Shown: in pieces, positions 25,660 to 63,094 of the stretch
Numbering within the stretch: the stretch's first letter is position 1
Layout of the letters: every line of letters begins with the position of its first letter
Source: Terriglobia bacterium
GTDB lineage: Bacteria; Acidobacteriota; Terriglobia; Bryobacterales; Bryobacteraceae
Reading direction: 5' to 3'
DNA: 64,000 bases
NCBI GenBank assembly: GCA_020073345.1
Contig: JAIQFI010000013.1
Location: 1 to 64,000, forward strand
The notes under the pieces: generated by a model
Database searches by the model: none
What the model saw: only the letters and a program-made list of their open reading frames with translations
What the model was told of the DNA's origin: nothing
Made by a program: the position numbers and the translations under genes

Positions 25660-25722
25660 CGAAAGGTGTCCCGTTATTGATGCCTTAACGGAACCTACAG
25701 TTCCGGAAGGCATTTCAAACGC
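25660..25722 (-). repeat. Leader-like repeat, related to 63036-63094
   Basis: Read on the minus strand, this segment aligns with the leader of the truncated recombinase at 63 kb: a TTTGAAATGCC box, then a CCG block, then TTCCG(A/T)TAAGGC, then a CCTTTC end. The 17-of-18 match of the first box makes chance unlikely. It contains site 1 of the dif-like family. No recombinase coding sequence follows it. Confidence 0.65.
25671..25691 (-). repeat. dif-like site 1
   Basis: Arms CCGTTAT and TTAACGG (6 of 7 pair) around a 7-bp spacer, one base longer than most copies. It lies upstream of the alpha/beta hydrolase gene, inside the leader-like repeat. Confidence 0.55.
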
Positions 25723-25998
25723 TTTCGTTCCCTCTACATCCACTTCATTCGCCAGATGATAACTGCGCTGTTATGCTCGCGGGCCGAAAAGAAACCCTTT
25801 TGAACCGGTGTCGGCGGTTTCCTTTGGGACGTCCACTCCTCCGTTAACCACTTCCTTGGAGCCTTCCGAATTCCGGAACCGCGCTCCGACGCTTCCCAGG
25901 GTGCAGGGTAAACAGAGCGGACTACCCGCGTAAATCGTTCAGAGTCGTTTGGCAAACGCTCATGCGCAAGCGTGCTTGAGCCAAGATAAACTGTTGAC

Positions 25999-27120
25999 AT
26001 GCGCAGGCATGTTTGGGCGATCCTATTTTCCCTCACGGCCTTAAATGCCGAGGACATTTCTGGTATCTGGCAAGGTACGCTGGGCGAAGGCACAGACAAA
26101 ACTCGGCTGATGCTGCGAATCGCGAAAGGCCACGATCGGTGGACCGGCACGCTATTCAGCATCGATCAAGGCGAGGATTGGGAGTCTGGGCAGCCCCTTT
26201 CTTCGGTGATTCTTCGAGCTAAGTCGATAACGCTCAAAGTCGATGAGCAAGGGATGTTCGGTGCCTTCGAGGGAACTTTGAACCCCGGGGGAGCATCCAT
26301 AATGGGCACCTGGATTCAAGGAGGTTTCGGCCAACCCATAGAGTTCGATCGAGCCACCAAGAAGACCGAATGGAAGGATCCGTCCTCGCACTCCGTCCGG
26401 TTCGCTACTGTAGACCGCGGCGTGCGATTGGAAATACTCGATTGGGGAGGACGCGGGCCTTCGCTGGTGCTGTTGGCTGGCTTGGGAAATACTGCGCATG
26501 TGTTCGACCGGTTTGCGCCGAAGCTGACAGCATCAAACCACGTCTACGGAATCACGCGCCGTGGATTCGGCACCTCCAGTGCCCCCCAGTCGGGATACTC
26601 GGCGGACCGGCTGGGAGATGATGTACTCGCCGTAATCGAGTCACTTAAACTCACACGGCCTGTTTTGGCAGGACACTCCCTAGCTGGCGAAGAATTAAGC
26701 TCCATCGGTTCGCGATTTCCCGGCAGGGTTGTGGGACTGATCTATCTGGACGCCGGCTACTCGTACTCGTTCTACAACCGTGCGACAGTCCTAGATACGG
26801 AGGAGATGCTGCGCAGTGCCACCGGACCCTCGCGTCTGATTGTGGAAGGCATGCAGAAGTACACGAGCATTCCCGTGCCCGTGCTTGCTATCTACGCTTT
26901 TCCACACGACTTGCGATCTATACCGGATGAGGCGGCGCGGAAGACGGCTGAAGGCTTGGACCCGATCATATCGGGGGAGCAATCGAAGGCATTTGCAGCT
27001 GGAGTGCCATCGGCGCGGGTGGTCCGGCTGCCGAACGCGGATCACTATGTGTTTCGATCCAATGAAGCTGACGTGCTGCGCGAGATCAACACCTTCCTCC
27101 AAGGCTTGCCCCGAAAGTAA
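25999..27120 (+). CDS. Exported alpha/beta hydrolase
   Basis: The 373-residue protein has a likely signal peptide (VWAILFSLTALNA), a beta-rich domain (about residues 20-130) and an alpha/beta hydrolase fold. The nucleophile elbow is AGHSLAGEE (about residues 220-228), the oxyanion area is LLAGLGNTAHVF, an acid is likely in IYLDAGYS or a later strand, and the His is in PNADHYVF (about 350). The fold is shared by esterases, lipases and others, so the substrate is open. It is the first gene after dif-like site 1. Confidence 0.8.
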   Translation: MRRHVWAILFSLTALNAEDISGIWQGTLGEGTDKTRLMLRIAKGHDRWTGTLFSIDQGEDWESGQPLSSVILRAKSITLKVDEQGMFGAFEGTLNPGGASIMGTWIQGGFGQPIEFDRATKKTEWKDPSSHSVRFATVDRGVRLEILDWGGRGPSLVLLAGLGNTAHVFDRFAPKLTASNHVYGITRRGFGTSSAPQSGYSADRLGDDVLAVIESLKLTRPVLAGHSLAGEELSSIGSRFPGRVVGLIYLDAGYSYSFYNRATVLDTEEMLRSATGPSRLIVEGMQKYTSIPVPVLAIYAFPHDLRSIPDEAARKTAEGLDPIISGEQSKAFAAGVPSARVVRLPNADHYVFRSNEADVLREINTFLQGLPRK

Positions 27121-27667
27121 CAATGCCAGCATGAATTCCCCTCAACTCGAACCAAGGACACCATGAATTACGAACAGATTTGGGACGATTCCCGCAGGTC
27201 AACCCCGATACGTGGCGAAATGTGCCGTGCCGAAATGGCTGTTGCCAGCCTTCCCTTTGCGGGCTGATTCAGGGCGGACCCAATACGTCGCAAGCCCCGT
27301 GAGAAAACCTCATAGTTTCGGCACGGGGTACATTTCGCACAACGCCGTTTTCGTGGGGATTCCGGCGAAGCTGAACGCTCATTCCGAAGGGAAGCCGAAC
27401 GGCATTCCGGGATGATCCCGAACACCATCGGAGCATAGCGACGCTGGCAACTCGATTGTGCGGAAAAGTTTTCGGCTTCGTCAAGAGAAACTTGTCCGGA
27501 GCGCAGCGAAGGATGGATGTTAAGTAGCGGAGTAAGGGGTGCGGGGGAAGGGGCGGCAGCCCTTGTCCCCGCCTCAGCACTGAAGCAGCCCGAGCGCGAA
27601 GCGCTCCGATAGATCCTTCAAATTCCGCTAAAATGCAACACGTGAGTCAGATCGCCCGTGATCCGGC
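27121..27667. other. Gap between hydrolase and zincin-like gene
   Basis: No convincing gene. Open frames here have no family features. The stretch around 27480-27600 is G-rich and may hold hairpins. A promoter for the downstream gene is expected but not identified. Confidence 0.4.
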
Positions 27668-29107
27668 GTGAAGTGGCAGGAGGAGTCGAAATTGCCTAAG
27701 TCCAAAAGCCTCCTTAACCTACGGAAACCTGTCTTCTGCTACGCGCCCCTCATCCTTTGCCTGGCCTCTTCCCTTCAGGCGTACCAACCCCGTTTCACTG
27801 CGGAAGTTTCCGCCCACGCTTCCGCGGTTTATGCGCTCGCCTGCCTCAACCGCCAAATTTCGTGCACACGGACCAAGTTTCAAGGGCGTGAGAGCCACCC
27901 TGCGGTCGCCGAATGGAAGGCCGCGTTCGACGCACTGCTTCCTATCGAGAGTGACGCAACTCCTGTTCCCTTCATACCTAACACTCCCGCGCTCTTCCCG
28001 GAGCAGCGCCGCCGCAACCAGATTCTTGATGCACTCCTCGAATCGCGGTCCGCGGAGCAACTTGCTCGCCGAGCCCGACTAGACCTAGCCTTGGCACGCA
28101 AGCTCTGGAGTGCACTACTCTCCATGCGCGGCACAATGCCCCGGACGCCGTCGTCGCTGCTCACGATGCGCAATGCGTCGCAGAAGCTGCTCCGAGACAT
28201 AAGGGTTTCCCAACTCACGCGAGACATCGGCACCCTGCTAAATCCATCCGGCGCCAACGAATCGATCATTCTGCATTTGATCCCTTCCCCCGATCCGACC
28301 ACTGACGAGGCCACGGGAACCATGGTCGGCCGGCATGTATTCGTCGAGGTTACGGACTACGCTAAGGCCGATTTTGCTCCCTCCATTGCATTGCACGAAA
28401 CCATTCACTACCTGTACGACTCGGTTTCGCCTAAAACACACCGAGGGCGCATGCAGATGTTTCTTGCTCGCTCCTACCCAAGAGCCTCGTCGTTCTATAC
28501 CCTATTCAATGAAGCCCTCGCCGTGGCCGCTCAGCATCTGCTTGACATTCGCATGGGCGAGGATGATGCGGAGTCCGAAGGCGATACCTACCGCGATGCA
28601 TACATCCCCCGTGCCGGGCGCGTCCTCGCGCCTATCCTCGATCAGTGGATCTCCCGGCGCCGCCGCTTTGACGAGCAGTTCGTGCAAGCCTACCTGGACG
28701 GGTGCGCCAAGGAATTTGCCCCTGATCTCGCCAGTCCCCGGTTCTTGCTGGTTTCTGGAGTCTTCGTCGCTTCGGCATCAGCCGAGGCCGCCTTAGATCA
28801 GTTGTTGAGCGATCTCCAGTCGCATAGTAACGTCACACTTAAGCCCGAGGATGGCTCCTGGAGTCGGTTCACGCACACTCCTTTAGTTTTACTAGGCACC
28901 TCGGCGGAGCTGCGGCCTTTCTGGACCCAATATCCGGAAATCGAGCGCTTTGCCGCCGAAGGCTCTTTCATCTCAGCAACGATGGACCGGCATGCGGGTA
29001 TGACCCGGCCGGTTATTGTTCTCGGGGGTAGCGGCGTCGACGCGATTCGGGCGGCGGCGAAAGAGCTGTTAACCCGGTCTGTCTGGGATGCCTCGGTGTC
29101 GCATTGA
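27668..29107 (+). CDS. Exported zincin-like protein, family not recognised
   Basis: A 479-residue protein with a probable signal peptide (FCYAPLILCLASSLQAY, about residues 24-40). The motif LHETIHYLYDS (about residue 240) is HExxH, and NEALAVAAQHL about 40 residues later supplies a possible third ligand, as in gluzincins. The rest is helical with a Ser/Ala-rich C-terminal part (VIVLGGSGVDAIRAAAKELL). This suggests a secreted metallopeptidase, but no substrate or family can be named. The start at 27668 may be later at the ATG- or TTG-like codons before the signal peptide. Confidence 0.6.
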   Translation: MKWQEESKLPKSKSLLNLRKPVFCYAPLILCLASSLQAYQPRFTAEVSAHASAVYALACLNRQISCTRTKFQGRESHPAVAEWKAAFDALLPIESDATPVPFIPNTPALFPEQRRRNQILDALLESRSAEQLARRARLDLALARKLWSALLSMRGTMPRTPSSLLTMRNASQKLLRDIRVSQLTRDIGTLLNPSGANESIILHLIPSPDPTTDEATGTMVGRHVFVEVTDYAKADFAPSIALHETIHYLYDSVSPKTHRGRMQMFLARSYPRASSFYTLFNEALAVAAQHLLDIRMGEDDAESEGDTYRDAYIPRAGRVLAPILDQWISRRRRFDEQFVQAYLDGCAKEFAPDLASPRFLLVSGVFVASASAEAALDQLLSDLQSHSNVTLKPEDGSWSRFTHTPLVLLGTSAELRPFWTQYPEIERFAAEGSFISATMDRHAGMTRPVIVLGGSGVDAIRAAAKELLTRSVWDASVSH

Positions 29108-34461: not shown

Positions 34462-34481
34462 CCGGTAAGGAGCATTATCGG
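34462..34481 (-). repeat. dif-like site 2
   Basis: CCGGTAA GGAGCA TTATCGG: 7-bp arms with 6 of 7 pairing and a 6-bp spacer. It separates the large exported gene from sodC. Confidence 0.6.
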
Positions 34482-34521
34482 AACGTTTCCACGGGACCCG
34501 GGTGAAGATGGTGTCCGGCTA

Positions 34522-34536
34522 CGCCGTCATCCAGGA
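34522..34536 (+). repeat. 15-bp direct repeat, left copy (by sodC)
   Basis: CGCCGTCATCCAGGA, with further similarity upstream (TGTCCGGCTA). An identical 15-mer lies at 35181-35195 on the other side of sodC. Both are intergenic and in the same orientation. Confidence 0.7.
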
Positions 34537-34559
34537 GGTAACCGTTTTCTGACTGGAGG

Positions 34560-35081
34560 CTACTTTGTAATGGTGCCGCAAGCGATTCGGTCACCTGCGT
34601 TGCCAGCAGGATCCGTCTTGTAATCGTCTGCTTTGGCATGAATCATCAGCGCGGTGCCGCCGTTGGCGAAAAGTGAATTGCTCCCCGTACCCAGGTTGAC
34701 CGTGGAGTTCACGACGGTCACCTTCGCTGTACCGTTAGATCCTGCCGTGAAGTTATTAATGTCGCCCGCATGTGAGCCCATGGGATTATCCTTGCCGTGC
34801 TGCTTCATTGTCGGATTGAAGTGGCCGCCTGCGGTCGTAAACGCCGGACCTTCGCACTTCGCGTTGGCGTGAATATGCACAGCGTGCTCGCCCGGAGGAA
34901 GATTCTTCAGATTCAGTTTGATCGTGACGCCGTTACCACCCTTGTTTTCACTTATGCTGGCGGTCCCGACACTTTGCCCCTTCCCGTCAGATAGGTTCAC
35001 GGCCACCGGCTTATTCGCGGCGTAGGCTCCCACGGCGACAAACAGAGAAGCAAGAACAATTCTAAAGACGGACTTGATCAT
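34560..35081 (-). CDS. sodC: Superoxide dismutase [Cu-Zn]
   Basis: The 173-residue protein has a signal peptide ([17 protein letters not shown]) and the Cu/Zn-SOD fold. Metal ligands are seen in [11 protein letters not shown] (about residues 66-76), [14 protein letters not shown] and the late [10 protein letters not shown]; the Cys pair is KC and RIACG. It converts superoxide to peroxide and oxygen in the periplasm. It is flanked by a 15-bp direct repeat, which hints at transfer. It may relate to the nearby copper-linked genes. Confidence 0.93.
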
Positions 35082-35180
35082 GAAATCTCCTTCAAGTCTT
35101 CAGTCTAGCGATTCCAGCCCAAATCCCCAAGTCACAAGTCTCTGCCCAGCCCAGAGTTTCGAAAAAGTACTGTACGGATG

Positions 35181-35195
35181 CGCCGTCATCCAGGA
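35181..35195 (+). repeat. 15-bp direct repeat, right copy (by sodC)
   Basis: Identical to 34522-34536. A third, weaker relative (GTGACGGATACGCCGT) is at 35797-35812, so the copies bracket sodC and then the next small gene. Confidence 0.65.
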
Positions 35196-35283
35196 CTCGG
35201 GGCTTCCTGATGGGAATTGCCCTACAATGAATAGGCCACCTGCCAGTCTGGCGGTGTTGAGTCCAAGAAAGAGGGTGGTGTTC

Positions 35284-35619
35284 ATGGCTATAGGGGTTTA
35301 CTTCGCTCCCGCCGCAATGTCGGCGGCGCAATACGACGAGTGCATCAAATTATTGAAAAAGGCTGGGGCGGGCAACCCGGCTGGACGCTCGTACCACGCG
35401 GCGTTTGGCCCGAGAGAGAAACTGATGGTGTTCGATGTCTGGACATCGCAGACGGCGTTCGACAAGTTCGGGAAGACGCTGATGCCCGTCCTTCAACAAC
35501 TCGGGCTCGATGCCGGACAGCCGATGGTGATGCCGCTGCACAAGGTGATTGTGCCGACGGCGAAGGTTACGTCGCCCAGGAAGCAGGCGAAAGCCTCCGC
35601 TCGCCGGAAGAAGCGCTGA
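35284..35619 (+). CDS. Small protein of ferredoxin-like fold (ABM-like), uncertain
   Basis: The frame is open from 35074, but the ATG at 35284 is the likely start, giving 111 residues (MAIGVYFAPAAMSAAQYDE...). It has the alternating pattern of dimeric alpha/beta-barrel proteins (GVYFAP ... SYHAAFGPREKLMVFDVW ... FDKFGKTLMPVLQQLG) and a Lys/Arg-rich tail (RKQAKASARRKKR). No enzyme function can be assigned. It lies between two copies of the sodC-flanking repeat family. Confidence 0.5.
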   Translation: MAIGVYFAPAAMSAAQYDECIKLLKKAGAGNPAGRSYHAAFGPREKLMVFDVWTSQTAFDKFGKTLMPVLQQLGLDAGQPMVMPLHKVIVPTAKVTSPRKQAKASARRKKR

Positions 35620-35863
35620 CAACCACAGGACCATCCGGCCCCGGGGGTAGAGGGCCGCACCTCGTCCGTTGGGTCTACTCGAATCCGGTCCGAGCTGTCG
35701 GTTCCGTCACGGAAACGGGTTCGGATCGAGTCGGCAACTTTTCCACGGTTTTTGGCTGACGCTCAACTCCGCGCCAAACAGCAAATTTGAAAGTAGGTGA
35801 CGGATACGCCGTAATACATTCCTATCTACTTCTTGATCGAGTAAGCTTAGTTAAATCAAGTGT

Positions 35864-36300: not shown

Positions 36301-36428
36301 AGCTAATCCCTTGGACTACCTCGCCAAGCTACAGGCCGCGGCGTAATATGATGAATCCTGCCTGGCCGGAAAACGATCTTCTGCGGCCACAGGCTTCGTG
36401 CTTTGGTGTGGAGGCGAGATCGGAAACA

Positions 36429-49729: not shown

Positions 49730-49838
49730 GCTGTTCCTGATCAAGCTGTTTGCGGTACCAAAAGGTATTGGTGACGGTTTCGTCACGCCTTGATCCACTA
49801 CATTTGGCGGGTGATAAGCGTTAAGTCCCCATCGCGTT

Positions 49839-49858: not shown

Positions 49859-50016
49859 CACGAGTGCCGGGCAGTCCGAAAAGGATTACTTCCGGATACG
49901 GCTTAATACAGGACTGACCAATGGGGGCGGCTGAGGGCGACTGCGCAAGCCTGACCGTTTCCTGACACAACTCCAACTGATATCAGACTGGCGATCGCCT
50001 ATAATAAAGTGCGATT

Positions 50017-52631: not shown

Positions 52632-52685
52632 TTGACTCCTGGTGATCGCCAGACCCCGTCCCTCTAAGCTTCTTGTGGAGGCAAT

Positions 52686-54761
52686 ATGAAACGAACTATC
52701 ACAATCGGATCCTTCGTCGCGCTGGCGCTTGCCGTTCTACTTTCCGCCGACGATAAGAAGGCTGTCGTCCTACTGCAGGCAGCGCTCGCTAAAGAGACCG
52801 TCCAGGGCGACCTGAAAGGCGCCATCGCCCTGTACCAGAACGCGCTCAAGGAAGCCGGCGCGAATCGCGCCCTGGCCGCACAGACGCTGGTCCATATGGC
52901 CGAATGTTATCGGAAAGAGGGTGACGCGGAGTCCCTCAAGATTTACGAACGTGTCGTTCGGGACTACTCGGACCAGAAGGAAGCGGTCGCAATGGCGCGG
53001 GCGCGGCTCGGCCCGGGCGGGTCATCCGAGTCGGTCGTCAGACGGCTTCCCTGCGCTTGGTGCGGTGGGGAAGAGTGGTATGTGTCGAAGGACATAAACT
53101 CGGTTGCCATTATCGATTCCGGCGACATTGCAATCCGTGATCTATCCACAGGTCAGGTCAAGCATCTTCTGGCCAAGACCGGATCCTCGCAAGATTCCCT
53201 AGCGTCGGCCAGTTCCCCCGTTCTTTCGCCCGATCGCCGGCAAATTGCGTATACCTGGGAGACGGGCGAAAGCGTATATCGACAGCAGTTAAGGATCATG
53301 GCGAACGAGCCCGGCGCCAAATCGCGAGTGCTCTTTGAAACCAACGCGGAGAATCGATATATCTGGCTGTTCGATTGGTCCGCCGACGGGAAGTCCCTAC
53401 TGGCGGAAATCATGCGGGCCGATCAAACCTGGCAATTCGTCTGGCTTTCCGTGGCCGACGGCACAGTGAAACCGATCAAGTCCCTTCAGTGGCGTCGGGA
53501 TTACGGAACTGACCCGATCCTTTCTCCGGATGGACGCTACATGGCATACCAGGCTCGGGCCGTCAATCCCAGCAAGGTTCCCCCTGAGCCCACCGATCCC
53601 AAGGACGTTCATATCTATGTCCTCGCTTCCGATGGAACCAGTGAGACCGAGGTAGTGAGAACCGCCGGAGTCAACAGGAATCCTGTGTGGACGCCCAACG
53701 GCAAACACCTGCTGTTCATCAGCGACCGTATGGGAAGCGCGGGCCTATGGTCGATCGCCATGGACAACGGGAAAGCCGTGGGCTCGGCCACACTGGTCAG
53801 CTCAAACCTGGGTTCGGGCTATGTGTGGCTGAACGGCTTGACGGCTTCAGGCTCTTTGAACTACGTTTTGTCGCAGCCAGGGGAGCAGATATTCATCACG
53901 GATATCGATTCTGCCGGCCGGAGAATTCCTGGACGCAAACAGGAAAGTTTGGTGGGCATCCGTCCCGCGTGGTCGCCGGACGGAAAGTTCATCGCCTTTA
54001 AGAGACGTCATCCCGGCGTCGAATGGGCGGGCGACAAGATGCCGGGCACCTTCGACCTCGTAGTTCATTCCGTCGAAACCGGAGACGAGAGGACATTTCC
54101 AACCACTCTGGGCGACCACGTCCGCGAAGCACCCGAGTGGTTCCACGATAGCAAGAGCCTGTTAGTTGGACTGGCGCGCAACGGCGAGCCGCTCGGCGGC
54201 TATCGTGTCGATCTTGCCAGCGGCGAGTTCACAAAAGTCCTCGACGGCCAGCTTATTAACACCGGAGCACCGATGTGGCTCTCTCGGGACGACAAGACCC
54301 TCTACGTCTTTCGCAGGGGCATCGTGGCTCACGATCTCGCTACCGGCAAGGATCGTATGGTGCTGTCCGTCCCAACTGGAGGACGCTTGTCGCACCGACT
54401 GAGCCCCGACGGCCGCAGTTTTGCCTTCTGGAGCACCGACCCGCAAGCCAAAAAGAAAATCCTGGGCACCATCGGTGTCGATGGCAGTAATCTCCGCGAA
54501 CTTTACACGGCGGACTTCAATATGAGTTTCACCCATCTGGCCTGGACCCGTGATGGCCGGACGATTCTCTTTGAACATCAAGAGGATCGGCGGGTCATGC
54601 GTATTCCGGCCGAGGGCGGCACTCCTGAATTCACAGGAATCGAGACAGAATCCATGCTGAATATGGACGTCAGCCCGAGCGGCTCGAGTCTTGCCTACGG
54701 CGTGACGAACGCCCGCAACGAGCTCTGGTCACTCGACAACGTGCTTTCGGCGCTCAAGTGA
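52686..54761 (+). CDS. Exported PD40/TolB-like protein with N-terminal TPR
   Basis: The 691-residue protein has a signal peptide (ITIGSFVALALAVLLSA) and TPR-like sequence (KGAIALYQNALKEAGANRALAAQTLVHMAECYRKEGDAE, about residues 34-90, shown in part only here as a region), followed by PD40 repeats (SPDRRQIAYTW, SPDGRYMAY, TPNGKHLLFIS, SPDGKFIAFKR, SPDGRSFAFW). This resembles TolB-like or peptidase-linked propellers but lacks a peptidase domain. It lies 54 bp after the response regulator, same strand, with an AGGCA-type site. Function unknown; likely periplasmic. Confidence 0.75.
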   Translation: MKRTITIGSFVALALAVLLSADDKKAVVLLQAALAKETVQGDLKGAIALYQNALKEAGANRALAAQTLVHMAECYRKEGDAESLKIYERVVRDYSDQKEAVAMARARLGPGGSSESVVRRLPCAWCGGEEWYVSKDINSVAIIDSGDIAIRDLSTGQVKHLLAKTGSSQDSLASASSPVLSPDRRQIAYTWETGESVYRQQLRIMANEPGAKSRVLFETNAENRYIWLFDWSADGKSLLAEIMRADQTWQFVWLSVADGTVKPIKSLQWRRDYGTDPILSPDGRYMAYQARAVNPSKVPPEPTDPKDVHIYVLASDGTSETEVVRTAGVNRNPVWTPNGKHLLFISDRMGSAGLWSIAMDNGKAVGSATLVSSNLGSGYVWLNGLTASGSLNYVLSQPGEQIFITDIDSAGRRIPGRKQESLVGIRPAWSPDGKFIAFKRRHPGVEWAGDKMPGTFDLVVHSVETGDERTFPTTLGDHVREAPEWFHDSKSLLVGLARNGEPLGGYRVDLASGEFTKVLDGQLINTGAPMWLSRDDKTLYVFRRGIVAHDLATGKDRMVLSVPTGGRLSHRLSPDGRSFAFWSTDPQAKKKILGTIGVDGSNLRELYTADFNMSFTHLAWTRDGRTILFEHQEDRRVMRIPAEGGTPEFTGIETESMLNMDVSPSGSSLAYGVTNARNELWSLDNVLSALK

Positions 54762-55090
54762 AGCGCTTCGTCAAATCCGCGGAAGGTTGGGAAGATCGCA
54801 CCAGGACGGAACTCCGGCCTGCGTGAGAGACTACCACTCAACGGGTATCGGCAAGCCTGAAAGCCCGGTGTGTCGAAATGGCCACTTACACACATCGAGT
54901 AATCGACGGATTCAACAGTCCTCTTTCGCCCGGCAGAATCCGTGCGAAAACCACACGCTTTTGACACGGGGCGGCCGAGGGCAACTTCTTACTATGTGAT
55001 GCCGACTTTACGGCCAAGGGGTGGTGGTGTTTGAAGTCGACCCTTGCGCGACTAGCTAAGACTAAACTTATAGCCAGAGGAGCTTAATCC
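54762..55090. other. Gap with nothing recognised
   Basis: About 330 bp. No gene or repeat family was identified. An AGAGGAG site near the end serves the next gene. Confidence 0.4.
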
Positions 55091-55510
55091 GTGCCGAACC
55101 GACAGCAATGGATCATTTTGGTCGCTATTGTGACCTCGCTGACGCGAGACGCCGCGGGCAGCCCTAAGTGCCCGAATCTTTCAGGAAATTACATGATTCA
55201 GGGGGAAGATGGGCAGGTTCACATTTCCATCGAGCAGCTTAGGTGTGACCGCATCACGATTGTTAGGAAGAGCGGTTACCTGGGAAAAATATCCTTCGAA
55301 AAACATACCCTCAATCTGGACGGAAACGATCAAAAAGACTCGCCTTGGCTGGGTAGCTCGGAGCACTTCAAGACTTCTGCGAAGTTCGTTGGTTCCAAGT
55401 TGGAAGTAAAAGCGAGAACCAGCGGCGGTTCGACGCTCAGGCTGATTTACTCTTTGACTTCCTCCCGCGATCTCCTGGAAGGAGAGCTTGTGGCCAAGCG
55501 CCAAGAGTGA
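55091..55510 (+). CDS. Small exported hypothetical protein
   Basis: The GTG at 55091 follows an AGAGGAG site and gives 139 residues with an N-terminal hydrophobic segment (WIILVAIVTSL). The body is beta-rich (LSGNYMIQGEDGQVHISIEQ ... STLRLIYSLTSSRDLLEGEL) and two Cys near residue 27 and 51 could pair. No family is recognised. Probably periplasmic. Confidence 0.5.
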   Translation: MPNRQQWIILVAIVTSLTRDAAGSPKCPNLSGNYMIQGEDGQVHISIEQLRCDRITIVRKSGYLGKISFEKHTLNLDGNDQKDSPWLGSSEHFKTSAKFVGSKLEVKARTSGGSTLRLIYSLTSSRDLLEGELVAKRQE

Positions 55511-55604
55511 ATCTTCTGCGATCAGCCCGGAAAGTGGGTGGTAATCTCAAACTGAACCTTTCTACACGCTCCTTCGCAGCGCGTCTGGAGAACTGTTTTT
55601 TCTC

Positions 55605-56162
55605 TTGGCAATGACTTACATAGAGGTCGGCGATCCGGGAAAGGGCCCGTGTCAAAAGCGTGCGGTTCTGGCACAGCTTCTGCGGGAGGAGACGGAGATC
55701 CTCGGTGGAAGAAGCACCGCGGCCAAGATCGACAACCCCGATCGTTACTGGAGTTGGTTTGAGGAACTGTACAAGACGTGCAAACCCAGCAAAGCCGGAA
55801 GTGAGAAGGCTACCAGGGTGGTGGACGGCCCGGCGCTCGAAGAAAAATTCTGCGCCTGGGTTTCCGAGAAGAAACTGCCGAAGGCCGAGCAGGTCCGCAA
55901 GCTGGCCACCATCCTGGAAAACCCGGCAGCCATGAACGTGTTCGAAGAGTCCGGAATCGACCGGGCCATGGATGCTATCGCCGAAGACGATCCGACGGTT
56001 AACTCCAAGCTCTGGAAGCAACTGCAGACCGCGGACATGCTTACCCACATGGAGCTGCCCCAGTTGGAAGCTCTGCGCAAACATGAGCCGGCCAAGAGCC
56101 GGATCTTCGATGAGCTAGGGGCGGCCGTCGACCGCATCCGCGCCGAAATCAAGCATCCCTAG
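55605..56162 (+). CDS. Possible ParB-like C-terminal fragment
   Basis: No signal or membrane segment in 185 residues. A stretch EEKFCAWVSEKKLPKAEQVRKLATILENP followed by AMNVFEESGIDRAMDAIAEDDPTVNSKLW (each part of a longer run) resembles the C-terminal part of ParB-like proteins that end in a helical segment, but the N-terminal nuclease/HTH parts are absent. It may be a truncated partition-type gene, or an unrelated helical protein. No parA is nearby. Confidence 0.4.
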   Translation: MAMTYIEVGDPGKGPCQKRAVLAQLLREETEILGGRSTAAKIDNPDRYWSWFEELYKTCKPSKAGSEKATRVVDGPALEEKFCAWVSEKKLPKAEQVRKLATILENPAAMNVFEESGIDRAMDAIAEDDPTVNSKLWKQLQTADMLTHMELPQLEALRKHEPAKSRIFDELGAAVDRIRAEIKHP

Positions 56163-56251
56163 CAGCGCTTTCGTAACAGGTGTCCTTTCGGCAAGGCTGC
56201 ACAAACCATTGGCCAATCGGCGAAATAGTGCGTTTTAGAACTACCGTCAGC

Positions 56252-58081
56252 TCACCGTTTACGCATCGGAATCCAAGAGGGTGCACCCTCTTCGGTCGAG
56301 TTGTCTGTCAGCAGATGAACGTTCGAGCCGTCCGCACGCATGACGGCGATCTCTCCATATGGCTGGAACGTCAGACCGGCGGGAGAAGCCAACAGCAAGT
56401 GGATCGCTTCATCCTTGAATCCCTGCCGCCCCGTCGAGAAGGCGATCCATTCCCCATCGGGAGAGAAACTGGAATGAGCATTCTTGCCTTGCGCATGAGT
56501 CAGACGTTGCAGGCTGGATCCATCCGGCCGAATCCTGTAGATCTCATAATCGCCGTCCCGCTTACTGGTGAAAGCGATCCAGTCGCCGCGGGGCGACCAA
56601 TCGGGGAATACATCGTATTCCGATCCGGTTTCCAGCTTCCGGCTTTTGCGACTCGCAAGGTCCAGAATGTGTAGACCCCGCACCGGACCGTTCGTCACAC
56701 GATAGGCCACCTGTTTGCCATCAGGCGACCAACTCGGCGATCCGCTATTCTCATCGGCCGCTGTGATGGCAGTCATACTGGACCCATCGGGACGAATGCT
56801 CATTAATTGCGCCGGCTTGATCGTCTCCCTCTGATAAAGCCCTCCCAAGGTAAACAGGATGACGTCGCCCACCGGAGACCACATCGGCAACATCATGTCA
56901 TCGGTCGCCGGACCCTCAAATATCACCCGATGATCGGAACCGTCCGGACGTGCCACAACGATCGAGCCGCTACGGGACGCTCCATTAAGGGTGCCCTGCT
57001 GGTAGACCATCCGGTCTCCGCTGGGAGAAAAGGAAGCAGGATAGGGGAAACGCCGCAAAGCGAACGACGGGTTCATGCCCGGCCAGGCTCGGACCGTATA
57101 GTCGCGCTCCGCGCCCACCTCCACCTCGCGATGAAAGATCATGCTGCGACCGTCGGGCGACCAATCCGGCGCTTCGAAGTCGCCCGCGAGTTTAACCCCG
57201 CCGGTGAAGGTGAGGCCGGTGCTGGTCTGGTAAGCGATCTCGTTCGAATCCACGTAGCGTGGAAAGACTTTCAGCCCCCCGCCGTCCGTAATTGTCTTTC
57301 GCTCGCCCGTCTTCCAATCCACTGAGACGATCTGGCTCAAGCCGTTGCCGAAAATCAAGCCGCCTTTGCAGACCTGGTCCAGAGCAGCGGTGTAGAAAAT
57401 GAGGCGCGATGCATCCGGCGACCAATGTGGGGTTCCCGTCAACTCGGAGGAATCGGTGATTCCGCGCAGGCCCGAGCCATCGGGATGCACAATGTAAATG
57501 CGGGTGAATTGCGGGGTAACAAAGGGCGCAGGACCGGGCGCGGTCGTGGCCGGACAGGCCTTGATCCGCGGATCCCGATCCGAAGAGAAGGCAATCCATT
57601 GTCCGTCCGGAGACCAGGCGGGCCTGAAATCTCCGGCCGGATGATTGGTAATGTTGCGCAATTTATGCGTCGCAAGATCGAGGACCCAGATGTCCGCCTG
57701 CCCGCTCCGGCTCGACACGAATGCAAGGGTCTTCCCGTCGGGCGAGAGCGCGCCCTGGTCATCAAAGGCGGGATCGTCTGTCAGCCGCTCCAACTGCGAT
57801 CCGTCCGGATGTACCCGATATATGTCCGCGGAGCCGGCGCGATGTGACGTGAAGACGATCCATCGTCCATCCCGAGAAAACGTTGCATTGTAATCCAGGG
57901 CGGAGTTGGGCACCAGCGGACGCGGGTTACTGCCGTCTCGCGGAGCTACAAAAATGTCCGTGTTGTACGGTGCGTAGCTCTTGATAGCGATGGTATATTT
58001 GGCCGCGCTATTCCCTTGCGCGGCCGCAATCGCACAAGACAAAAGCGGTAGGAGTAGTAAGCCGAATCGGGAACAGCCCAT
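56252..58081 (-). CDS. Exported PD40/TolB-like propeller protein
   Basis: The 609-residue protein has a signal peptide (GLLLLPLLSCAIAAAQG) and more than six PD40 repeats, such as SRDGRWIVFTSHRAG, SPDGKTLAFVSSR, SPDGQWIAFSSDR, SPDGRSMIFHR, SPDGKQVAYRV and SPDGEWIAFSTGR. No peptidase or kinase domain is attached. TolB-like proteins often act in envelope processes, but a role cannot be given. It converges with the possible ParB-like gene. Confidence 0.8.
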   Translation of the reverse strand: MGCSRFGLLLLPLLSCAIAAAQGNSAAKYTIAIKSYAPYNTDIFVAPRDGSNPRPLVPNSALDYNATFSRDGRWIVFTSHRAGSADIYRVHPDGSQLERLTDDPAFDDQGALSPDGKTLAFVSSRSGQADIWVLDLATHKLRNITNHPAGDFRPAWSPDGQWIAFSSDRDPRIKACPATTAPGPAPFVTPQFTRIYIVHPDGSGLRGITDSSELTGTPHWSPDASRLIFYTAALDQVCKGGLIFGNGLSQIVSVDWKTGERKTITDGGGLKVFPRYVDSNEIAYQTSTGLTFTGGVKLAGDFEAPDWSPDGRSMIFHREVEVGAERDYTVRAWPGMNPSFALRRFPYPASFSPSGDRMVYQQGTLNGASRSGSIVVARPDGSDHRVIFEGPATDDMMLPMWSPVGDVILFTLGGLYQRETIKPAQLMSIRPDGSSMTAITAADENSGSPSWSPDGKQVAYRVTNGPVRGLHILDLASRKSRKLETGSEYDVFPDWSPRGDWIAFTSKRDGDYEIYRIRPDGSSLQRLTHAQGKNAHSSFSPDGEWIAFSTGRQGFKDEAIHLLLASPAGLTFQPYGEIAVMRADGSNVHLLTDNSTEEGAPSWIPMRKR

Positions 58082-58580
58082 TCGTCATCCCTCTTTCGTT
58101 TCATCGATGCTAACACAACCCCCGCCTCAACCAAGACTGTGTCTCAAAAGCAAACGACCACAACGAACAATCCAGTCGGAGCTGAAAATGCGTCGATCTG
58201 CGTGCCGACAACATCGCGTCTGGACAGCCGAAAGTGAGGCCGGAGCCGAGAATCCTTATCATTTTTGCGGGTGGCCGAAAACCGTGTGGTTCCTGCACAT
58301 GCTGTCAGTGGACATACTCTGGGCTTAGAATCAGTTGCATCGATAGACCCATGTCAGCGGCCATTTCGGCACACACCTTGTCCTGAATCAGAACCAACAC
58401 CATCCATTCTTCCGTTTACACAATCATGTCGTTGCCGTGCTAGACGAGGGGAGTGACTTGTCCCATGCTTCGTCGGCGTTCGTATGCTATAGAACCAGGA
58501 CTTGGGGAATTGAAATGTACGCGTGGCTCTCGGCTGGTTGGCAAGGCGTCCGGTTTGCTCTTCGAGGTGGCGAACGACGC
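58082..58580. other. Gap with nothing recognised
   Basis: About 500 bp upstream of the PD40 gene and downstream of the carboxypeptidase-regulatory gene. No gene, RNA or dif-like site was found. Confidence 0.4.
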
Positions 58581-60080
58581 TTAAGGGAGGACGAACAAAT
58601 CAAGATCCTGCTGTGAATCGTGCGTATTTTCCACGACCACTGACTTAGCAGCAGGCTGCACCATCGCCGTGGAATCAACGGTGAGGTATTCGAATGAACT
58701 CAACACGCGATAATTGCCGGGCGCCAGTCCGCTGAAGCGGTATTGTCCATGCACATCCGTGCGGGTTATCAACGTCTGTGAAACACGTCGTGCCGGCTCC
58801 AGATCTTCTGATTCCAGAAATACCGGTGCGCCAATAACCGGATCCGCACCGGATTTGACAGTGCCGTGTATCGCACCAGGGTTGCCCGACAGAGCGAACC
58901 GGACGCCAACTCCACCAGTAAAGTCGTTCCAGCCATCTGCGCGGCCGTTGCCGGATTGTTGGATTCTCTGACCCGAGAAGCCTGATGCATAGAACGTGGG
59001 GTTCGGCACAAGCGCGAGTTGCCACGGTCCTGCCGAGAGATGGGCCCGATTGTTCTCCAGTTTCAGTACCTGCTCGGTTCCGGGGCCTGCCAGGTCCTTT
59101 CGCCTCGCCAACATTTGGATCGAACCCGGATTGCCGGTCTGGACCGAAGTGCCCTCAAACGTGAACAGAACGTCCACTTCCTCATGCAGCACGAACTTGA
59201 TCGTAGTGTCCTGGTTCAGGTTAACCTTCCGGTAGTCGCCCTGAAATCCGGGGCGCTGGTCGAGGGGGGCCTGGGAAAACACTTCATATTCTCCCGCCGG
59301 CATCGGACCAAAACGGTGAACGTTGCCTTGTACCATTTCTCTTCCAAGCTCCGAGGCCAGCGTCATCGTCACAGGGAGCGGCTCCGATGGATTCGGAGGG
59401 ACCGTGACCGCCTCCACCGTAAGCATGAATAACCGGCCGGTAACAGGCCGAACGTCCGCCCGATCCACTTGCTGATCCATCTCCACCTGCACCGGAAATG
59501 CTTGGCTCACCCCCTCGGATTCCTTCCCGAACGTTGGAAGATAGCTGATATCTTCGTACTGTTTGCCCGCAGTTCGAACCAGATAGCTGCCGGGCTCCAG
59601 GCCAGAGATTCGAAACATGCCGCGGTCATCCGATTTCGCACGGGCAACCGGCCGCGGCGGTTGGGTATTGCGGTAAGCGATCACGTCGTGATCCGGCAAG
59701 CCGACGTCGTTCTCGTCCAAGACCGTTCCGGCGATGGCTCCATAGCGGGGAAGCCGGATGTTGAGGACGGCTGCATCGTTTTCGGTAACAGTCACAGGCA
59801 TTCCGGCGGATTTCCACTGCTTTTGTCCGTACTGAACGGCGGCAAAGCCAGTCCGTGCCGCAGTGATCAGATAAACACCGGCGGGAAGCGTCGGGAACTC
59901 AAAGAAGCCATTTATATTAGTGCGAGCGGATCGCCGAAGCCCCGAAGCGCCTGGAACGGACTCTAACGTGACAGCGGCGCGCGCCACCGGATGACCGGTC
60001 TGGTTCTCTACGACGGTACCCTTGATATCGGCGGCGTGAAGGGCGGCTGTTGCCACTGCCAGGACAAAATACGTTCGCAT
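58581..60080 (-). CDS. Exported protein with carboxypeptidase-regulatory-like repeats
   Basis: The ATG at 60080 gives a signal peptide (YFVLAVATAALHA) and 499 residues. The frame is open upstream, but without a signal. Beta-sandwich repeats are seen at about 18-90 (IKGTVVENQTGHPVARAAVTL), about 105-180 (IAGTVLDENDVGLPDHDVIAY, then FRISGLEPGSYLVRTAGK) and near the C-terminus (IHGTVKSGADPVIGAPVFL, then YRFSGLAPGNYRVLSS). These are CarboxypepD_reg-like domains, often surface adhesion or scaffold units. No catalytic part. Function unknown. Confidence 0.75.
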   Translation of the reverse strand: MRTYFVLAVATAALHAADIKGTVVENQTGHPVARAAVTLESVPGASGLRRSARTNINGFFEFPTLPAGVYLITAARTGFAAVQYGQKQWKSAGMPVTVTENDAAVLNIRLPRYGAIAGTVLDENDVGLPDHDVIAYRNTQPPRPVARAKSDDRGMFRISGLEPGSYLVRTAGKQYEDISYLPTFGKESEGVSQAFPVQVEMDQQVDRADVRPVTGRLFMLTVEAVTVPPNPSEPLPVTMTLASELGREMVQGNVHRFGPMPAGEYEVFSQAPLDQRPGFQGDYRKVNLNQDTTIKFVLHEEVDVLFTFEGTSVQTGNPGSIQMLARRKDLAGPGTEQVLKLENNRAHLSAGPWQLALVPNPTFYASGFSGQRIQQSGNGRADGWNDFTGGVGVRFALSGNPGAIHGTVKSGADPVIGAPVFLESEDLEPARRVSQTLITRTDVHGQYRFSGLAPGNYRVLSSFEYLTVDSTAMVQPAAKSVVVENTHDSQQDLDLFVLP

Positions 60081-60524
60081 GATTGGTTGAATAAATGACG
60101 TAGAAGCCTCTTTCGGAGTGCAGGACAAAAGTGGCATATTGGGAACATAACATTCAAAGAGCCGTAACTCACAGCCAATCAAGGAGTGAAGTTGCATTGC
60201 TCCCCATCTGCTCGAACCGTGTGCCGCCGGTTGGGCCCATCCAAGGGCTCTGGGGTCGTCGGATCGCACAAGCGGATCTTTGGGGAGTTCAGCGCTCGGT
60301 ACCCAGCTTGTACCCATGTGGGCCTGGGCTTGCCGACTTTCGGCCGCGTTGACCCAAGGCCGGATTATCGGAACTCCGGCAGACTGAATCCCTCCAGGGA
60401 ATTCACTCCACGGGAATGCAAGTGATAACGTCGGGTATTGCATGATCGCCCGATGAACTGGGCAAGCGGCACTTCTTAATCTGCTAAGACAAAGGGGTTC
60501 GATTCGGCATCTGCTTCGAATAGA
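60081..60524. other. Gap, with one weak half-site
   Basis: No gene. A single TTATCGG arm of the dif-like pattern lies near 60365-60371 without a good partner arm; it is not counted as a site. Confidence 0.35.
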
Positions 60525-62705
60525 ATGAGGCAAAACATGATTCCAAGATCACGCGTTCTCTTGTATTTATTGCCGCTTGCGCTGGCGTTCGCTCAAGGTC
60601 CGCCGCCCAATCCAATCGTGAATCCCGGATTCGAGGTTGGCAAACTCGGAGATGTACCGATCGGCTGGATGAACACCATTCCTGCTTCTCCAACAAGGCT
60701 TGTCCAAGAATCTTGTCACACTGGAAAACAGTGCGCCGACTTAACTAGCACCGCTCAAGGTGTTCTGTTGCAATCTTTCGATGCCGCTCCATACCGGGGC
60801 AAGAAGTTTCGCTATCGCGCCGAAGTACGCAACAAGGCAGGGACCCGCGCGCAACTCTGGCTTCGGGTGGATCGTTTGAATGGCAGAGTGGGCTTCTTTG
60901 ATAACATGGGCGACCGGCCGATCACATCGGAGAATTGGAACGTCTATGAGATTAGCGGCGAAGTTGACCGCGATGCACGGAATATCTTTCTCGGTTTGTT
61001 ACTGCCAGGAGCGGGAGAAGCCTGGATCGATGATGCGTCGTTTGAAATCATTGGCGATGCCGATCCGGTAGAGCCAGCCAAGCCGCTGACTTTGCGGGGT
61101 CTTCAGAATCTGGAAGCACTAGCCCGTGCTTTTGGGTACATCCACTACTTCTATCCGAGCGATGAAGCAGCGGCTGCGGACTGGAACCATTTGGCTGAAG
61201 ACGGAATCCGTGCCGTGGAGCCTGCGCAAACGCCCGCTGAATTGGCGGCCAAACTACAATCTGCTTTCGCTGAGGTCGCTCCCACCGCGCGGATGTTTCT
61301 AACCGGGACTCCATTTCCCGTGCTGAATCTAAAACCCGGACCGAACATCATCTCGTGGCGGCACGAAGGAGTCAGCTTGAGCGCACAGAGTGTTTATCAC
61401 AGCGTCCGTGTGATCGAACCCGCGCCGCAGGCATTACGGCTTCTTCGCCGTGACCTTCCGGGTGGAGTTTCACTTCTCATGCCGATGGCGCTTTACCGCG
61501 ACGTGGCTGGACCGCCGATACAAGCGCCCATTCCGGCCAAACCCAGTGGTTCCGGCGATGATCGCACCACACGGTTGGCGGCGGTCATTGTTGCGTGGAA
61601 TGTGATGGAGCACTTCTATCCATACTTCGACGTCGTAAAGACTGATTGGGCGATGCAACTGCCAGTGGCGCTCAGCGCCGCCGCCGAAAATAAGGACGCG
61701 GATGAATTTGGCGTCACTCTGCGGAAGATGGTTGCGGCGCTACACGACGGCCACGGCAATGTAACTCCAGTCGCCGCCACGTTCAATCAGCCGATTATCT
61801 GGACGTGGGCGGAAGGGCGGATCGTCGTTCTCGCGACCAACGGCGTAGGCGGAATTAGTTCTGGCGATGCGCTTGTTTCAATCGACGGAAAGCCCGCGCT
61901 CGAAGCCATCGGCGAAATCGAATCTCTCGATTCTGGAGCCACGCCACAGTTCATACGGTACCGAGCGCTAGGGGAACTACTGGCACGTCCACGCGGTGCC
62001 ACTGCTCAACTTGAGGTGGAACCAGCCGCCGCGCCCGATACGCTCAAACCCGTAACGATTCGTTACGACCAGGCGTTTCGCCAGGTGCAGGAACCACGTC
62101 CCGACAAGGTCAGCGAACTGGAGCCCGGCATCTTCTATCTCGATCTAGACCGCATTACAGACGCCGACTACGCCGCTGCCCTACCGTCGCTGGCCAAGGC
62201 GAAAGGCATCGTCTTTGACATGCGCGGATATCCTAGGGGAATCCAGAATCCAGTGGAGTTTTTCAGCCACCTCATAGATAAGCCAGTTCGGACCGCCCAG
62301 TTTTTAGTTCCTATTGTCACCGAACCGGAGCACAAGATCACGGATTTTCGGGACGGCGGTTGGTTCATCCAGCCCAAGGCTCCATTCTTGACTGCTAAGC
62401 GCGCGTTCATTACGGACGGACGCGCGATCAGCTACGCCGAGACCTGTATGGCCATCGTGGAGAATTACAAGCTGGCCGAAATTGTCGGCGAGCCGACCGC
62501 CGGCACCAACGGTAACGTGAACCCTTTTCCCGTTCCCGGCGGCTACACAATTACGTGGACCGGGATGAAGGTGCTGAAACACGATGGCTCGCAGCATCAC
62601 GGCGTCGGGATTCAGCCCACCATTCGGGTTTCGCGCACTCGCGCGGGCATCGCCGCTGGGCGGGACGAGATGATCGAACGCGCTATCGAAGAAGTCAAAA
62701 AGTGA
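60525..62705 (+). CDS. Exported S41-family peptidase
   Basis: The 726-residue protein has a signal peptide (LLYLLPLALAFAQG), an N-terminal CBM-like beta domain (about 30-170), helical middle, a PDZ-like part (about 430-480, with GGISSGDALVSIDGKPA) and a C-terminal S41 domain. The Ser nucleophile is likely in TDGRAISYAE (about residue 634), with KLAEIVGEPTAGTNGN and GVGIQPTI nearby. Start at 60525, or 60537 where GAGG precedes ATG. It probably degrades peptides in the periplasm. Confidence 0.83.
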   Translation: MRQNMIPRSRVLLYLLPLALAFAQGPPPNPIVNPGFEVGKLGDVPIGWMNTIPASPTRLVQESCHTGKQCADLTSTAQGVLLQSFDAAPYRGKKFRYRAEVRNKAGTRAQLWLRVDRLNGRVGFFDNMGDRPITSENWNVYEISGEVDRDARNIFLGLLLPGAGEAWIDDASFEIIGDADPVEPAKPLTLRGLQNLEALARAFGYIHYFYPSDEAAAADWNHLAEDGIRAVEPAQTPAELAAKLQSAFAEVAPTARMFLTGTPFPVLNLKPGPNIISWRHEGVSLSAQSVYHSVRVIEPAPQALRLLRRDLPGGVSLLMPMALYRDVAGPPIQAPIPAKPSGSGDDRTTRLAAVIVAWNVMEHFYPYFDVVKTDWAMQLPVALSAAAENKDADEFGVTLRKMVAALHDGHGNVTPVAATFNQPIIWTWAEGRIVVLATNGVGGISSGDALVSIDGKPALEAIGEIESLDSGATPQFIRYRALGELLARPRGATAQLEVEPAAAPDTLKPVTIRYDQAFRQVQEPRPDKVSELEPGIFYLDLDRITDADYAAALPSLAKAKGIVFDMRGYPRGIQNPVEFFSHLIDKPVRTAQFLVPIVTEPEHKITDFRDGGWFIQPKAPFLTAKRAFITDGRAISYAETCMAIVENYKLAEIVGEPTAGTNGNVNPFPVPGGYTITWTGMKVLKHDGSQHHGVGIQPTIRVSRTRAGIAAGRDEMIERAIEEVKK

Positions 62706-62870
62706 TGCCTTAAAAGCAGACTTGAGCGCTTTCAGGAAGCTGTCACCTGGTAGCCTCTGCCTACGAAGTATGGCGTTGGCCAAGTCGAGCCGCGCTTGGA
62801 CGTAAAGGCCCTATCCGCAGGAGTGATCTTTCCCGTTTACTTCCGTGAACGGCGTTCCTGGAAGTAGCTA

Positions 62871-62890
62871 GCGACAATGCTCGTTATTGT
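62871..62890 (+). repeat. dif-like site 8 (degenerate)
   Basis: GCGACAA TGCTCG TTATTGT: 4 of 7 arm positions pair, but the flank GGAAGTAGCTA (62860-62870) matches that of site 6, supporting relation. Confidence 0.5.
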
Positions 62891-62953
62891 CTAGCACCCA
62901 CCACGCTGGGCCAACATCCCGCACGCTGTCACAAGGCCAGGGTCTTGGGATTT

Positions 62954-62975
62954 GCCGAAAGGATTTCCTTTCGGC
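62954..62975. repeat. CCGAAAGG hairpin B (perfect)
   Basis: GCCGAAAGG ATTT CCTTTCGGC has perfect 9-bp arms. It resembles hairpin A at 49839-49858. Both lie near dif-like sites, in the intergenic space. Confidence 0.65.
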
Positions 62976-63035
62976 CCGGCATGCTCAGTCGTGGAGTTAT
63001 CTCTGGCGACTGAAATGGGTGGAGGCGTGCTGAAA

Positions 63036-63094
63036 GTGTTTGAAATGCCTTTCGGCACGGTAGCTTCCGATAAGGCCCATTAAAAGGACCTTTC
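63036..63094 (+). repeat. Leader of the truncated recombinase
   Basis: TTTGAAATGCC, a TTTCGGC block, TTCCGATAAGGCCC and CCTTTC precede the ATG at 63095. The same order, inverted, is at 25660-25722. It contains dif-like site 9. Confidence 0.65.
63067..63086 (+). repeat. dif-like site 9 (right arm decayed)
   Basis: CCGATAA GGCCCA TTAAAAG: left arm intact, right arm decayed (4 of 7 paired). It is 8 bp upstream of the truncated recombinase start. Confidence 0.5.

What the first reader, a model, noticed from the sequence alone, without database searches (positions are those of the whole stretch)
25671..63086. Family of nine dif-like inverted repeats separating gene modules
Read by eye, nine intergenic 19-21 bp sites follow CCGATAA, about 6-bp spacer, TTATCGG: 25671, 34462, 39557, 42267, 44008, 44551, 49710, 62871 and 63067. 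Site 42267 has perfect 7-bp arms. Six or so have 5-6 of 7 paired; two are decayed. All lie between genes in the accessory half; none was noticed in the first 25 kb. The ATAA-6-TTAT core is the layout of Xer dif/pdif sites, and the spacer often begins TGC. The sites isolate small modules: one permease, one multicopper oxidase, one DUF2188 gene, kinase plus sigma, and a last site at a truncated recombinase. This looks like a cassette array moved by Xer or a related recombinase, in a phylum where I know of no such description.
Basis: partly seen in the sequence, partly recalled or inferred. Interest (0 to 1): 0.78.

Follow-up and report, generated by a model that had tools for sequence, protein, structure and literature searches.

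The report
Integron-like gene cassettes in soil Acidobacteriota
Short dif-like DNA sites in a soil bacterium mark the exact ends of gene cassettes that have moved between genomes, apparently through a Xer-type recombinase with a matching site beside its own gene, which resembles an integron but uses neither integron enzymes nor integron sites.

Summary
The sites are real. A motif model made without the window's sites recovers six of the nine at over 20 bits and nothing else in the window at 11 bits or more; the window's genome has 37 matches at E 0.1. The cassette reading holds: a 1.76-kb multicopper-oxidase module matches a related genome at 97% from site 42267 exactly to site 44008. Two other modules are shared site-to-site and a fourth from one site; crossovers fall in or beside the 6-bp spacer. 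Neighbouring sites share orientation in 37 of 44 pairs. A Xer-like tyrosine recombinase clade carries the same site just before its start codon: 17 of 19 N-termini, one of them weakly; the window holds a remnant at 63095. The enzyme is not IntI and the sites are not attC or the candidate dif. Single enzyme/site pairs on Acidobacteriota plasmids suggest a multimer-resolution origin. Inferred, not shown: catalysis by this recombinase, circles, and entry at the recombinase-adjacent site. Most intact recombinases were not seen heading arrays. Eight open full-text searches showed no description.

The parts
22394..22470 (+). tRNA-Val (CAC); its 3' part (51 bp, 22421-22471) is repeated at C43:66684-66734, outside the window: ends of the ~44-kb island that holds the array
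22536..23807 (-). phage-type integrase beside tRNA-Val, a different enzyme from the cassette recombinase
25671..25691 (-). cassette site, minus orientation (by eye), 7-bp spacer; flank homology with the 63067 site starts at its centre
34462..34481 (-). cassette site, spacer TGCTCC, right-flank family B
39557..39576 (-). cassette site, spacer TACGAA, right-flank family E
42267..42286 (-). cassette site, spacer TGCCCG; exact end of the cassette shared with G020
42267..44028 (.). mobile cassette with multicopper oxidase (42390-43823); 97.2% to G020:C63:89-1851; homology stops at both sites (on one side G020 has only 88 bp of contig left)
44008..44026 (-). cassette site, 5-bp spacer variant, orientation by eye; other end of the shared cassette
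44551..44570 (+). cassette site, spacer TGCCCG
49710..49729 (+). cassette site, spacer TGCTCC, right-flank family B
62871..62890 (+). decayed cassette site
63067..63086 (+). recombinase-adjacent (attI-like) site, core end 8 bp before the ATG of the recombinase remnant
63095..63373 (+). truncated Xer-like tyrosine recombinase (92 aa, 69% to the intact enzyme over 88 aa), lacks the catalytic domain
34462..39557 (.). module between sites: Cu/Zn superoxide dismutase and TIG/Big_2-domain protein genes
39557..42267 (.). module between sites: MacB/FtsX-type permease
44551..49710 (.). module between sites: protein kinase, DUF4394-like protein, ECF sigma factor
49710..62871 (.). module between sites: two-component pair, PD40-repeat, CarboxypepD_reg and S41 peptidase genes

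Best explanation
The sites are recombination sites of an integron-like cassette system. A Xer-like tyrosine recombinase (about 307 aa) has one copy of the site, as a rule 7-9 bp before its start codon. Other copies of the site, mostly in direct orientation, lie between gene modules. Recombination in the 6-bp spacer between two direct copies should release a module as a circle with one hybrid site, and the reverse reaction should insert it at another compatible site. Shown by sequence: modules bounded by sites in different contexts in different genomes, crossovers in or beside the spacer, mostly direct orientation, intergenic position, and the site at the recombinase start. Inferred: that this recombinase (siteATG clade or its Y2 sister) is the catalyst, that circles form, and that the recombinase-adjacent site is the entry point. 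In the window the array lies inside a tRNA-Val genomic island and its own recombinase is a remnant.
For: Shared blocks: window 42267-44028 = G020:C63:89-1851, 97.2%; G000:C66 5592-6303 vs G020:C30, 88.6%; G000:C1 vs G018:C324, 91.6%, all site to site; G000:C95 vs G020:C63, 98.6% then 94.9%, starting at a site. By the 12-bit cut-off alone all four ends of the C66/C30 block are sites; the other two need variant sites read by eye (44008 and its G020 partner, C1:38457). Crossovers in or beside the spacer. One-sided flank homology breaking inside the site: 34 of 38 left-only pairs; of 80 right-only pairs, 36 start in the site and 37 are recombinase genes against each other (recount; many repeat a few flank families). 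37 of 44 neighbouring sites share orientation (p 5e-6). 1 of 76 sites is in a predicted gene at coding fraction 0.73. Of 19 distinct siteATG-clade N-termini, 16 have a site of 13.6 bits or more, core end 7-9 bp from the start in 15 and 20 bp in 1, and one more has 10.6 bits at 8 bp. Of the 11 found by protein search, 8 have it at 13.6 bits or more and 1 at 10.6. A PWM from 19 G000 sites not beside such starts still gives 12.7 bits or more in 10 of 12 recombinase upstreams picked for having a site, two Chloroflexota included. siteATG clade one side of a branch, 100/99. R154 K181 H251 R254 H277 Y286 (catalytic set, recalled) invariant in 15 enzymes. In the genus, genomes with a recombinase hit have 2 or more sites in 8 of 10, those without in 0 of 13 (Fisher 9e-5).
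Against: No reaction was observed. The window's genome has no intact siteATG-clade enzyme; its four full-length copies are of the Y2 sister clade, whose site, seen in three, lies about 290 bp past the 3' end. Most siteATG recombinases were not seen heading arrays: a second same-direction site lies upstream in 4 of 19 (window, C36, L253, L247), though many stretches are short. Two of 19 N-termini lack the site: a broken copy in G020:C14, and L255, where only 37 bp of contig remain. Leaving out sites beside recombinase starts weakens the co-occurrence to 6 of 10 against 0 of 13 (my recount, p about 0.002 by hand); relatedness is not corrected for. G004 has recombinase hits and 0 sites, G007 only the recombinase-adjacent one. 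Spacers vary widely, so many pairs should not recombine if spacer identity is needed. Most window modules have no recent copy in the 22 relatives searched. The G020:C14 oxidase copy beside an intact recombinase is inverted and its ends do not reach sites. Most of the 22 shared blocks do not end at sites on both sides.
Confidence: 0.8

Rival explanations
1. dif modules: the modules are moved by the host XerC/XerD acting on dif-like sites, as described for Acinetobacter plasmids, and the special recombinase is incidental.
For: Same core layout ATAA-6-TTAT; the left arm TTCCGATAA equals that of the candidate genus dif TTCCGATAACAGATATTATGTTAACT. The window genome has distant Xer-like genes. Few intact special recombinases head arrays.
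Against: Right arm and spacer differ from the candidate dif. In the genus, the 13 genomes without a recombinase hit have at most one site each, though every genome should have XerCD (general knowledge). Neighbouring sites are mostly direct, not alternating (PMC13141974, passages). The site sits at the start codon of the special recombinase.
Confidence: 0.13
2. Integrative elements: each module is a small element that carried its own recombinase and used the site as attachment site; arrays are nested insertions with recombinases lost.
For: Recombinase remnants lie beside sites (window 63095, C36:17177); the Y2 blocks of C43, C80 and C36 end at a site.
Against: The site-to-site modules annotated mostly carry ordinary genes and no recombinase; modules share single sites in direct orientation.
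Confidence: 0.05
3. Targets, not tools: the palindromes are passive repeats that attract IS110-type elements, and the module borders are traces of transposition or homologous recombination.
For: IS110-type ends sit in the middle of the site at 12 distinct half-sites (transposase PF01548 in L165).
Against: No transposase was predicted in the three site-to-site cassettes; their borders fall in the sites at both ends; 20-bp repeats are short for homologous recombination; the site at the recombinase start is unexplained.
Confidence: 0.02

Closest known systems
Integrons (IntI / attI / attC)
   Same: Site next to the recombinase start, gene pointing away from the array where an array is seen, directly oriented sites, cassettes exchanged precisely between genomes, site clusters without an intact recombinase
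   Different: Enzyme is Xer-like (XerC/XerD 105-131 bits in five enzymes, integron integrase 26-43 bits against a cut-off of 265); sites are ~20-30-bp dif-like palindromes, not attC; intervals 0.2-14.5 kb (median 2.7 kb), often several genes in either direction
Acinetobacter pdif / dif modules (XerCD)
   Same: Gene modules bordered by dif-like sites with a 6-bp spacer; crossover in the site
   Different: There modules alternate so that sites alternate in orientation, and host XerCD acts (passages of PMC13141974); here sites are mostly direct, differ from the candidate dif, and a dedicated recombinase carries its own site
Recombinase plus single site pairs on Acidobacteriota plasmids
   Same: Same recombinase family (51.5-53.8%) with a CCGATAA-6-TTATCGT site just before the gene, near parA, on an Acidisarcina and a Granulicella plasmid
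   Different: One site found per plasmid, no cassettes seen; presumably multimer resolution (inference)
XerCD/dif
   Same: ATAA-6-TTAT core; left arm TTCCGATAA
   Different: Candidate dif of the genus is found once per genome (10 of 23 genomes searched, not in the window's genome) with right arm TTATGTTAACT

Membership tests
Integron | IntI integrase with its catalytic-domain insertion | tested here: not met
   TIGR02249 far below cut-off; the XerC model runs over 267 residues and 267 positions, so no net insertion. AlphaFold model is low in confidence (pLDDT 66.9); Foldseek ranks Xer first, with the integron integrase 2a3v at rank 31
Integron | attC sites (RYYYAAC...GTTRRRY, recalled) | tested here: not met
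   1 of 93 sites against 3 of 1000 control windows
Integron | attI-type site adjacent to the recombinase gene | tested here: met
   17 of 19 N-termini, one of them weakly
Integron | recombinase gene pointing away from a cassette array beside it (recalled) | tested here: inconclusive
   in 4 of 4 cases with a further same-direction site it lies upstream; 14 of 19 had no second site beyond their own, within stretches that are often short; the remaining one, the broken G020:C14 copy, has only its neighbour's site
Integron | array of sites in direct orientation | tested here: met
   37 of 44 neighbour pairs
Integron | single-strand folded cassette site as substrate | not testable with these tools
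   Flank families B and E gave little covariation
dif modules (XerCD) | both arms and spacer layout match the host dif | tested here: inconclusive
   Left arm and 6-bp spacing match, right arm does not; dif was not found in the window's own genome
dif modules (XerCD) | sites alternate in orientation | tested here: not met
dif modules (XerCD) | recombination by host XerC and XerD | not testable with these tools
   needs an assay
Site-specific recombination cassette system (general) | module borders coincide with sites, crossover inside the site | tested here: met
   three modules at both ends, a fourth at one

The most novel reading that the evidence does not exclude
A second, independently evolved gene-capture platform: a plasmid multimer-resolution recombinase with its dif-like site, still found as single pairs on Acidobacteriota plasmids, gave rise in this Acidobacteriota family to chromosomal arrays of mobile gene cassettes. 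It would be a living counterpart of the duplex-site stage proposed for the ancestor of integrons.
Probability: 0.5. Interest if true: 0.9.

Novelty: new variant of a known kind. Interest (0 to 1): 0.8.

Why it matters
Integrons are the textbook gene-capture platform, and how they arose from Xer-like enzymes is open (PMC4792948, passages read, discusses a Xer-like ancestor and duplex sites). A system of similar layout with Xer-like enzymes and dif-like sites would show that the layout does not need IntI or attC, and would make the transition testable. It could also explain accessory-gene exchange in an important soil phylum and gives a motif for finding such cassettes.

Tried and rejected
A loose palindrome count does not exceed shuffles. 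The conserved 110-150-bp right flanks B and E were folded as possible attC-like structures; the covariation terms were negligible (-0.03 and +0.48) and I dropped it. Two matches each to the site pattern turned up in two Chloroflexota genomes, so no arrays are shown there. Phage records held no relative at E 1e-20. 75 viral-contig relatives were found; 36 of them (L264-L299) were scanned for a CG-N-TAATG core, with one hit, L288. A generic dif consensus (recalled) did not match the window's genome, nor did the genus dif. The island's own phage integrase was considered as the cassette enzyme and set aside: it is beside tRNA-Val and of a different type. The oxidase copy at G020:C14 was first read as a cassette beside the recombinase; it is inverted and its ends miss the sites, so it is not counted.
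Full report
OBSERVATION. Their number as loose palindromes is not above chance (13 against 4-19 in shuffles), but the specific motif is. A PWM trained on 20 sites without any from the window finds six of the nine at more than 20 bits, nothing in the first 25 kb, and 0.03 hits per shuffle at 15 bits. Fourteen of the training sites had been gathered with patterns taken from window sites, so they are not fully independent; the six recombinase-adjacent ones came from protein searches.

GENOME-WIDE. A covariance model of 27 sites gives 37 matches in the window's genome at E 0.1 (seven in the window), 16 in G019, 15 in G020 and 12 in G018. It gives 0 in 38 genomes of other genera. In a larger sample of the order, 39 of 232 genomes match at E 0.02; all 39 are in the same family and 27 are of other genera. 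So the motif is not confined to the genus; G099, G131 and G130 have 9, 7 and 5. G020 appears to be Terriglobia bacterium SRVP_10, because its recombinase positions agree with JAIQFE01 contigs (inference).

CASSETTES. Of 93 site flanks compared, 34 of 38 left-only alignments break inside the site. Of 80 right-only ones, 36 start inside the site and 37 are recombinase genes against each other. Comparing 38 stretches (604 kb) gave 22 blocks of 250 bp or more at 78% or more. The multicopper-oxidase module 42267-44028 is 97.2% identical to G020:C63:89-1851; homology stops at both sites, though on one side only 88 bp of the G020 contig remain, and one unrelated 388-bp match (66.8%) lies elsewhere. 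The DUF1775 module of G000:C66 (5592-6303) matches G020:C30 from site to site. The PBP-domain module of G000:C1 matches G018:C324 from site to site, one end being a degenerate site. A molybdopterin-oxidoreductase cluster in G000:C95 starts at a site and matches G020:C63; its right end has an 820-bp difference and then reaches the contig end, so it is not informative. Other blocks do not end at sites on both sides: IS110 copies; blocks between L059 and L168, L059 and L180, L176 and L177, and L068 and L169, which I did not resolve; the diverged oxidase copies; and L165/L180, with one end at a site. The Y2 recombinase blocks end at a site on one side. Letter by letter, the oxidase cassette carries the left arm plus spacer at one end and the right arm at the other, as expected for a crossover in or beside the spacer.

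ARRAY ORDER. Sites are directional, because the left half (AGCTtCCGATAATGC) is better conserved than the right. Of 44 neighbour pairs in 23 stretches that I chose for having two or more sites, 37 share orientation, 6 go minus-plus and 1 plus-minus (25671 and 44008 fall below its cut-off). The window shows five minus then four plus sites, which looks like two arrays back to back. 25671 and 63067 have the same left flank in mirror image. 1 of 76 sites lies in a predicted gene; with the looser gene cut-off, L171 13234 also does. Intervals between direct neighbours run from 196 to 14,511 bp, median 2.7 kb, n = 37. Genes in them run in either direction.

RECOMBINASE. Just outside the window, at C43:65490-66422, is an intact 310-aa tyrosine recombinase (Y2). 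It has about 90% identical copies at C80, C36, C51 and C93, the last cut by a contig end. The blocks shared by the C43, C80 and C36 copies end at a site about 290 bp past the gene. In two G020 copies that site is split by an IS110-type end, and in L088 I saw none. In the siteATG clade, 19 distinct N-termini were found at 60% identity or more. Sixteen have a site of 13.6 bits or more, with the core end 7-9 bp from the start in fifteen and 20 bp in one; L247 has 10.6 bits at 8 bp. A broken copy in G020:C14 has none, and L255 has only 37 bp of contig. Eight of the 19 (window, L056, L250, L258, L344, L346-L348) had been reached through site searches and so had to have it. Of the 11 reached through the protein, 8 have it at 13.6 bits or more and 1 at 10.6. 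Other members of the wider family scored (Y2 clade, Pyrinomonadaceae, further Acidobacteriota) show no such site upstream, apart from L089 (Bryobacterales) and the Chloroflexota L090 and L091. A PWM from 19 G000 sites not beside siteATG starts (one is the Y2 3' site) gives 12.7 bits or more in 10 of 12 selected upstreams; L126 (1.4) and L247 (7.0) fail. The tree puts the eight siteATG enzymes and the seven Y2 enzymes each on one side of a branch, 100/99, apart from the more distant Xer-like genes of the genome, whose long branches are unreliable. Catalytic residues are invariant in 15. The enzymes score best with XerC/XerD, far below the equivalog cut-offs, and poorly with integron integrase; the best PDB matches are Xer proteins. 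The predicted fold is low in confidence and only supportive. The window's siteATG enzyme is a 92-aa remnant beside site 63067. A second site in the same direction lies upstream in 4 of 19, so the picture of recombinases heading arrays rests on few cases, and in the window and C36 the recombinase is a remnant.

SETTING. The array lies in an island between tRNA-Val (22394-22470) and a 51-bp copy of its 3' end at C43:66684-66734, with a phage-type integrase at 22536-23807. That is why the first 22 kb are free of sites.

ORIGIN. Relatives of the enzyme (51.5-53.8%) lie on 7 plasmid records of Acidisarcina, Granulicella, Paludibaculum and Deinococcus; I read the surroundings of five. On an Acidisarcina and the Granulicella plasmid the palindromes CCGATAA-TCCCAG-TTATCGT and CCGATAA-TCCAAC-TTATCGT lie 34-35 bp before the gene, near parA. 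The Acidisarcina stretch occurs once on each of four Acidisarcina plasmids, three identical and one at 88.6%. The Deinococcus QL22 plasmid has ACCGATAATGTCTGTTA upstream; the Paludibaculum and D. aetherius genes show no such palindrome. One site per plasmid suggests multimer resolution as the older role (inference).

COMPARISON. Acinetobacter dif modules alternate in orientation and rely on XerCD (PMC13141974, passages read). Integron cassettes rely on IntI and attC (PMC9668308, PMC8138268, passages read). A Xer-like ancestor for IntI has been discussed (PMC4792948, passages read). PMC3414803 (passages) reports tyrosine recombinase families shared by Solibacter and other hosts, and trio elements, but I saw no cassette array of this kind there. 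Searches of open full text (listings) showed no account of Xer-like cassette arrays in Acidobacteriota; subscription papers and preprints were not covered.

VERDICT. That the sites are cassette ends used in site-specific exchange is well supported. That the site-bearing Xer-like recombinase does it is likely but untested; host XerCD is the main rival. It works like an integron but fails two membership tests (enzyme, attC), so it is filed as a new variant, not as an integron.

Noticed in passing
L013, L058, L064-L067, L086, L087, L150 (12 half-sites): IS110-type ends of two kinds sit precisely in the middle of the cassette site, so this site also seems to be an IS110 target.
   Followed up: partly
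window 34326-34481, 49710-49865, 39443-39576 and other loci: Two families of 110-150-bp conserved right flanks (B with spacer TGCTCC, E with TACGAA) follow the site in otherwise different modules; function unknown, no convincing covariation.
   Followed up: partly
Acidisarcina pACPOL plasmids, Granulicella pACIX905 (L341, L342): Same recombinase family with a single palindromic site before the gene, near parA: probable plasmid multimer resolution.
   Followed up: partly
past the 3' end of the Y2 gene, L062 about 4795-5000 and its copies in L053, L057: A short reading frame with a resolvase-like HTH lies between the Y2 recombinase and its 3' site; possible accessory factor (read from the sequence, not tested).
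   Followed up: no
window 63394-63864 and L053 3394-4967: DUF4411/PIN-type gene next to an HTH plus IrrE-type (M78) gene: toxin-antitoxin-like pair at the island end.
   Followed up: no
upstream of the site in L109-L112, L114, L136, L152: A second conserved stretch, CTTGATGT...GAGGTAATGTCCACATGA, lies just before the recombinase-adjacent site; possibly an accessory repeat (GGTAATGTCC resembles the left half-site).
   Followed up: no
L181 2012-2809 (G020:C63): Another tyrosine recombinase (25% to the cassette enzyme) directly after the multicopper-oxidase cassette.
   Followed up: no
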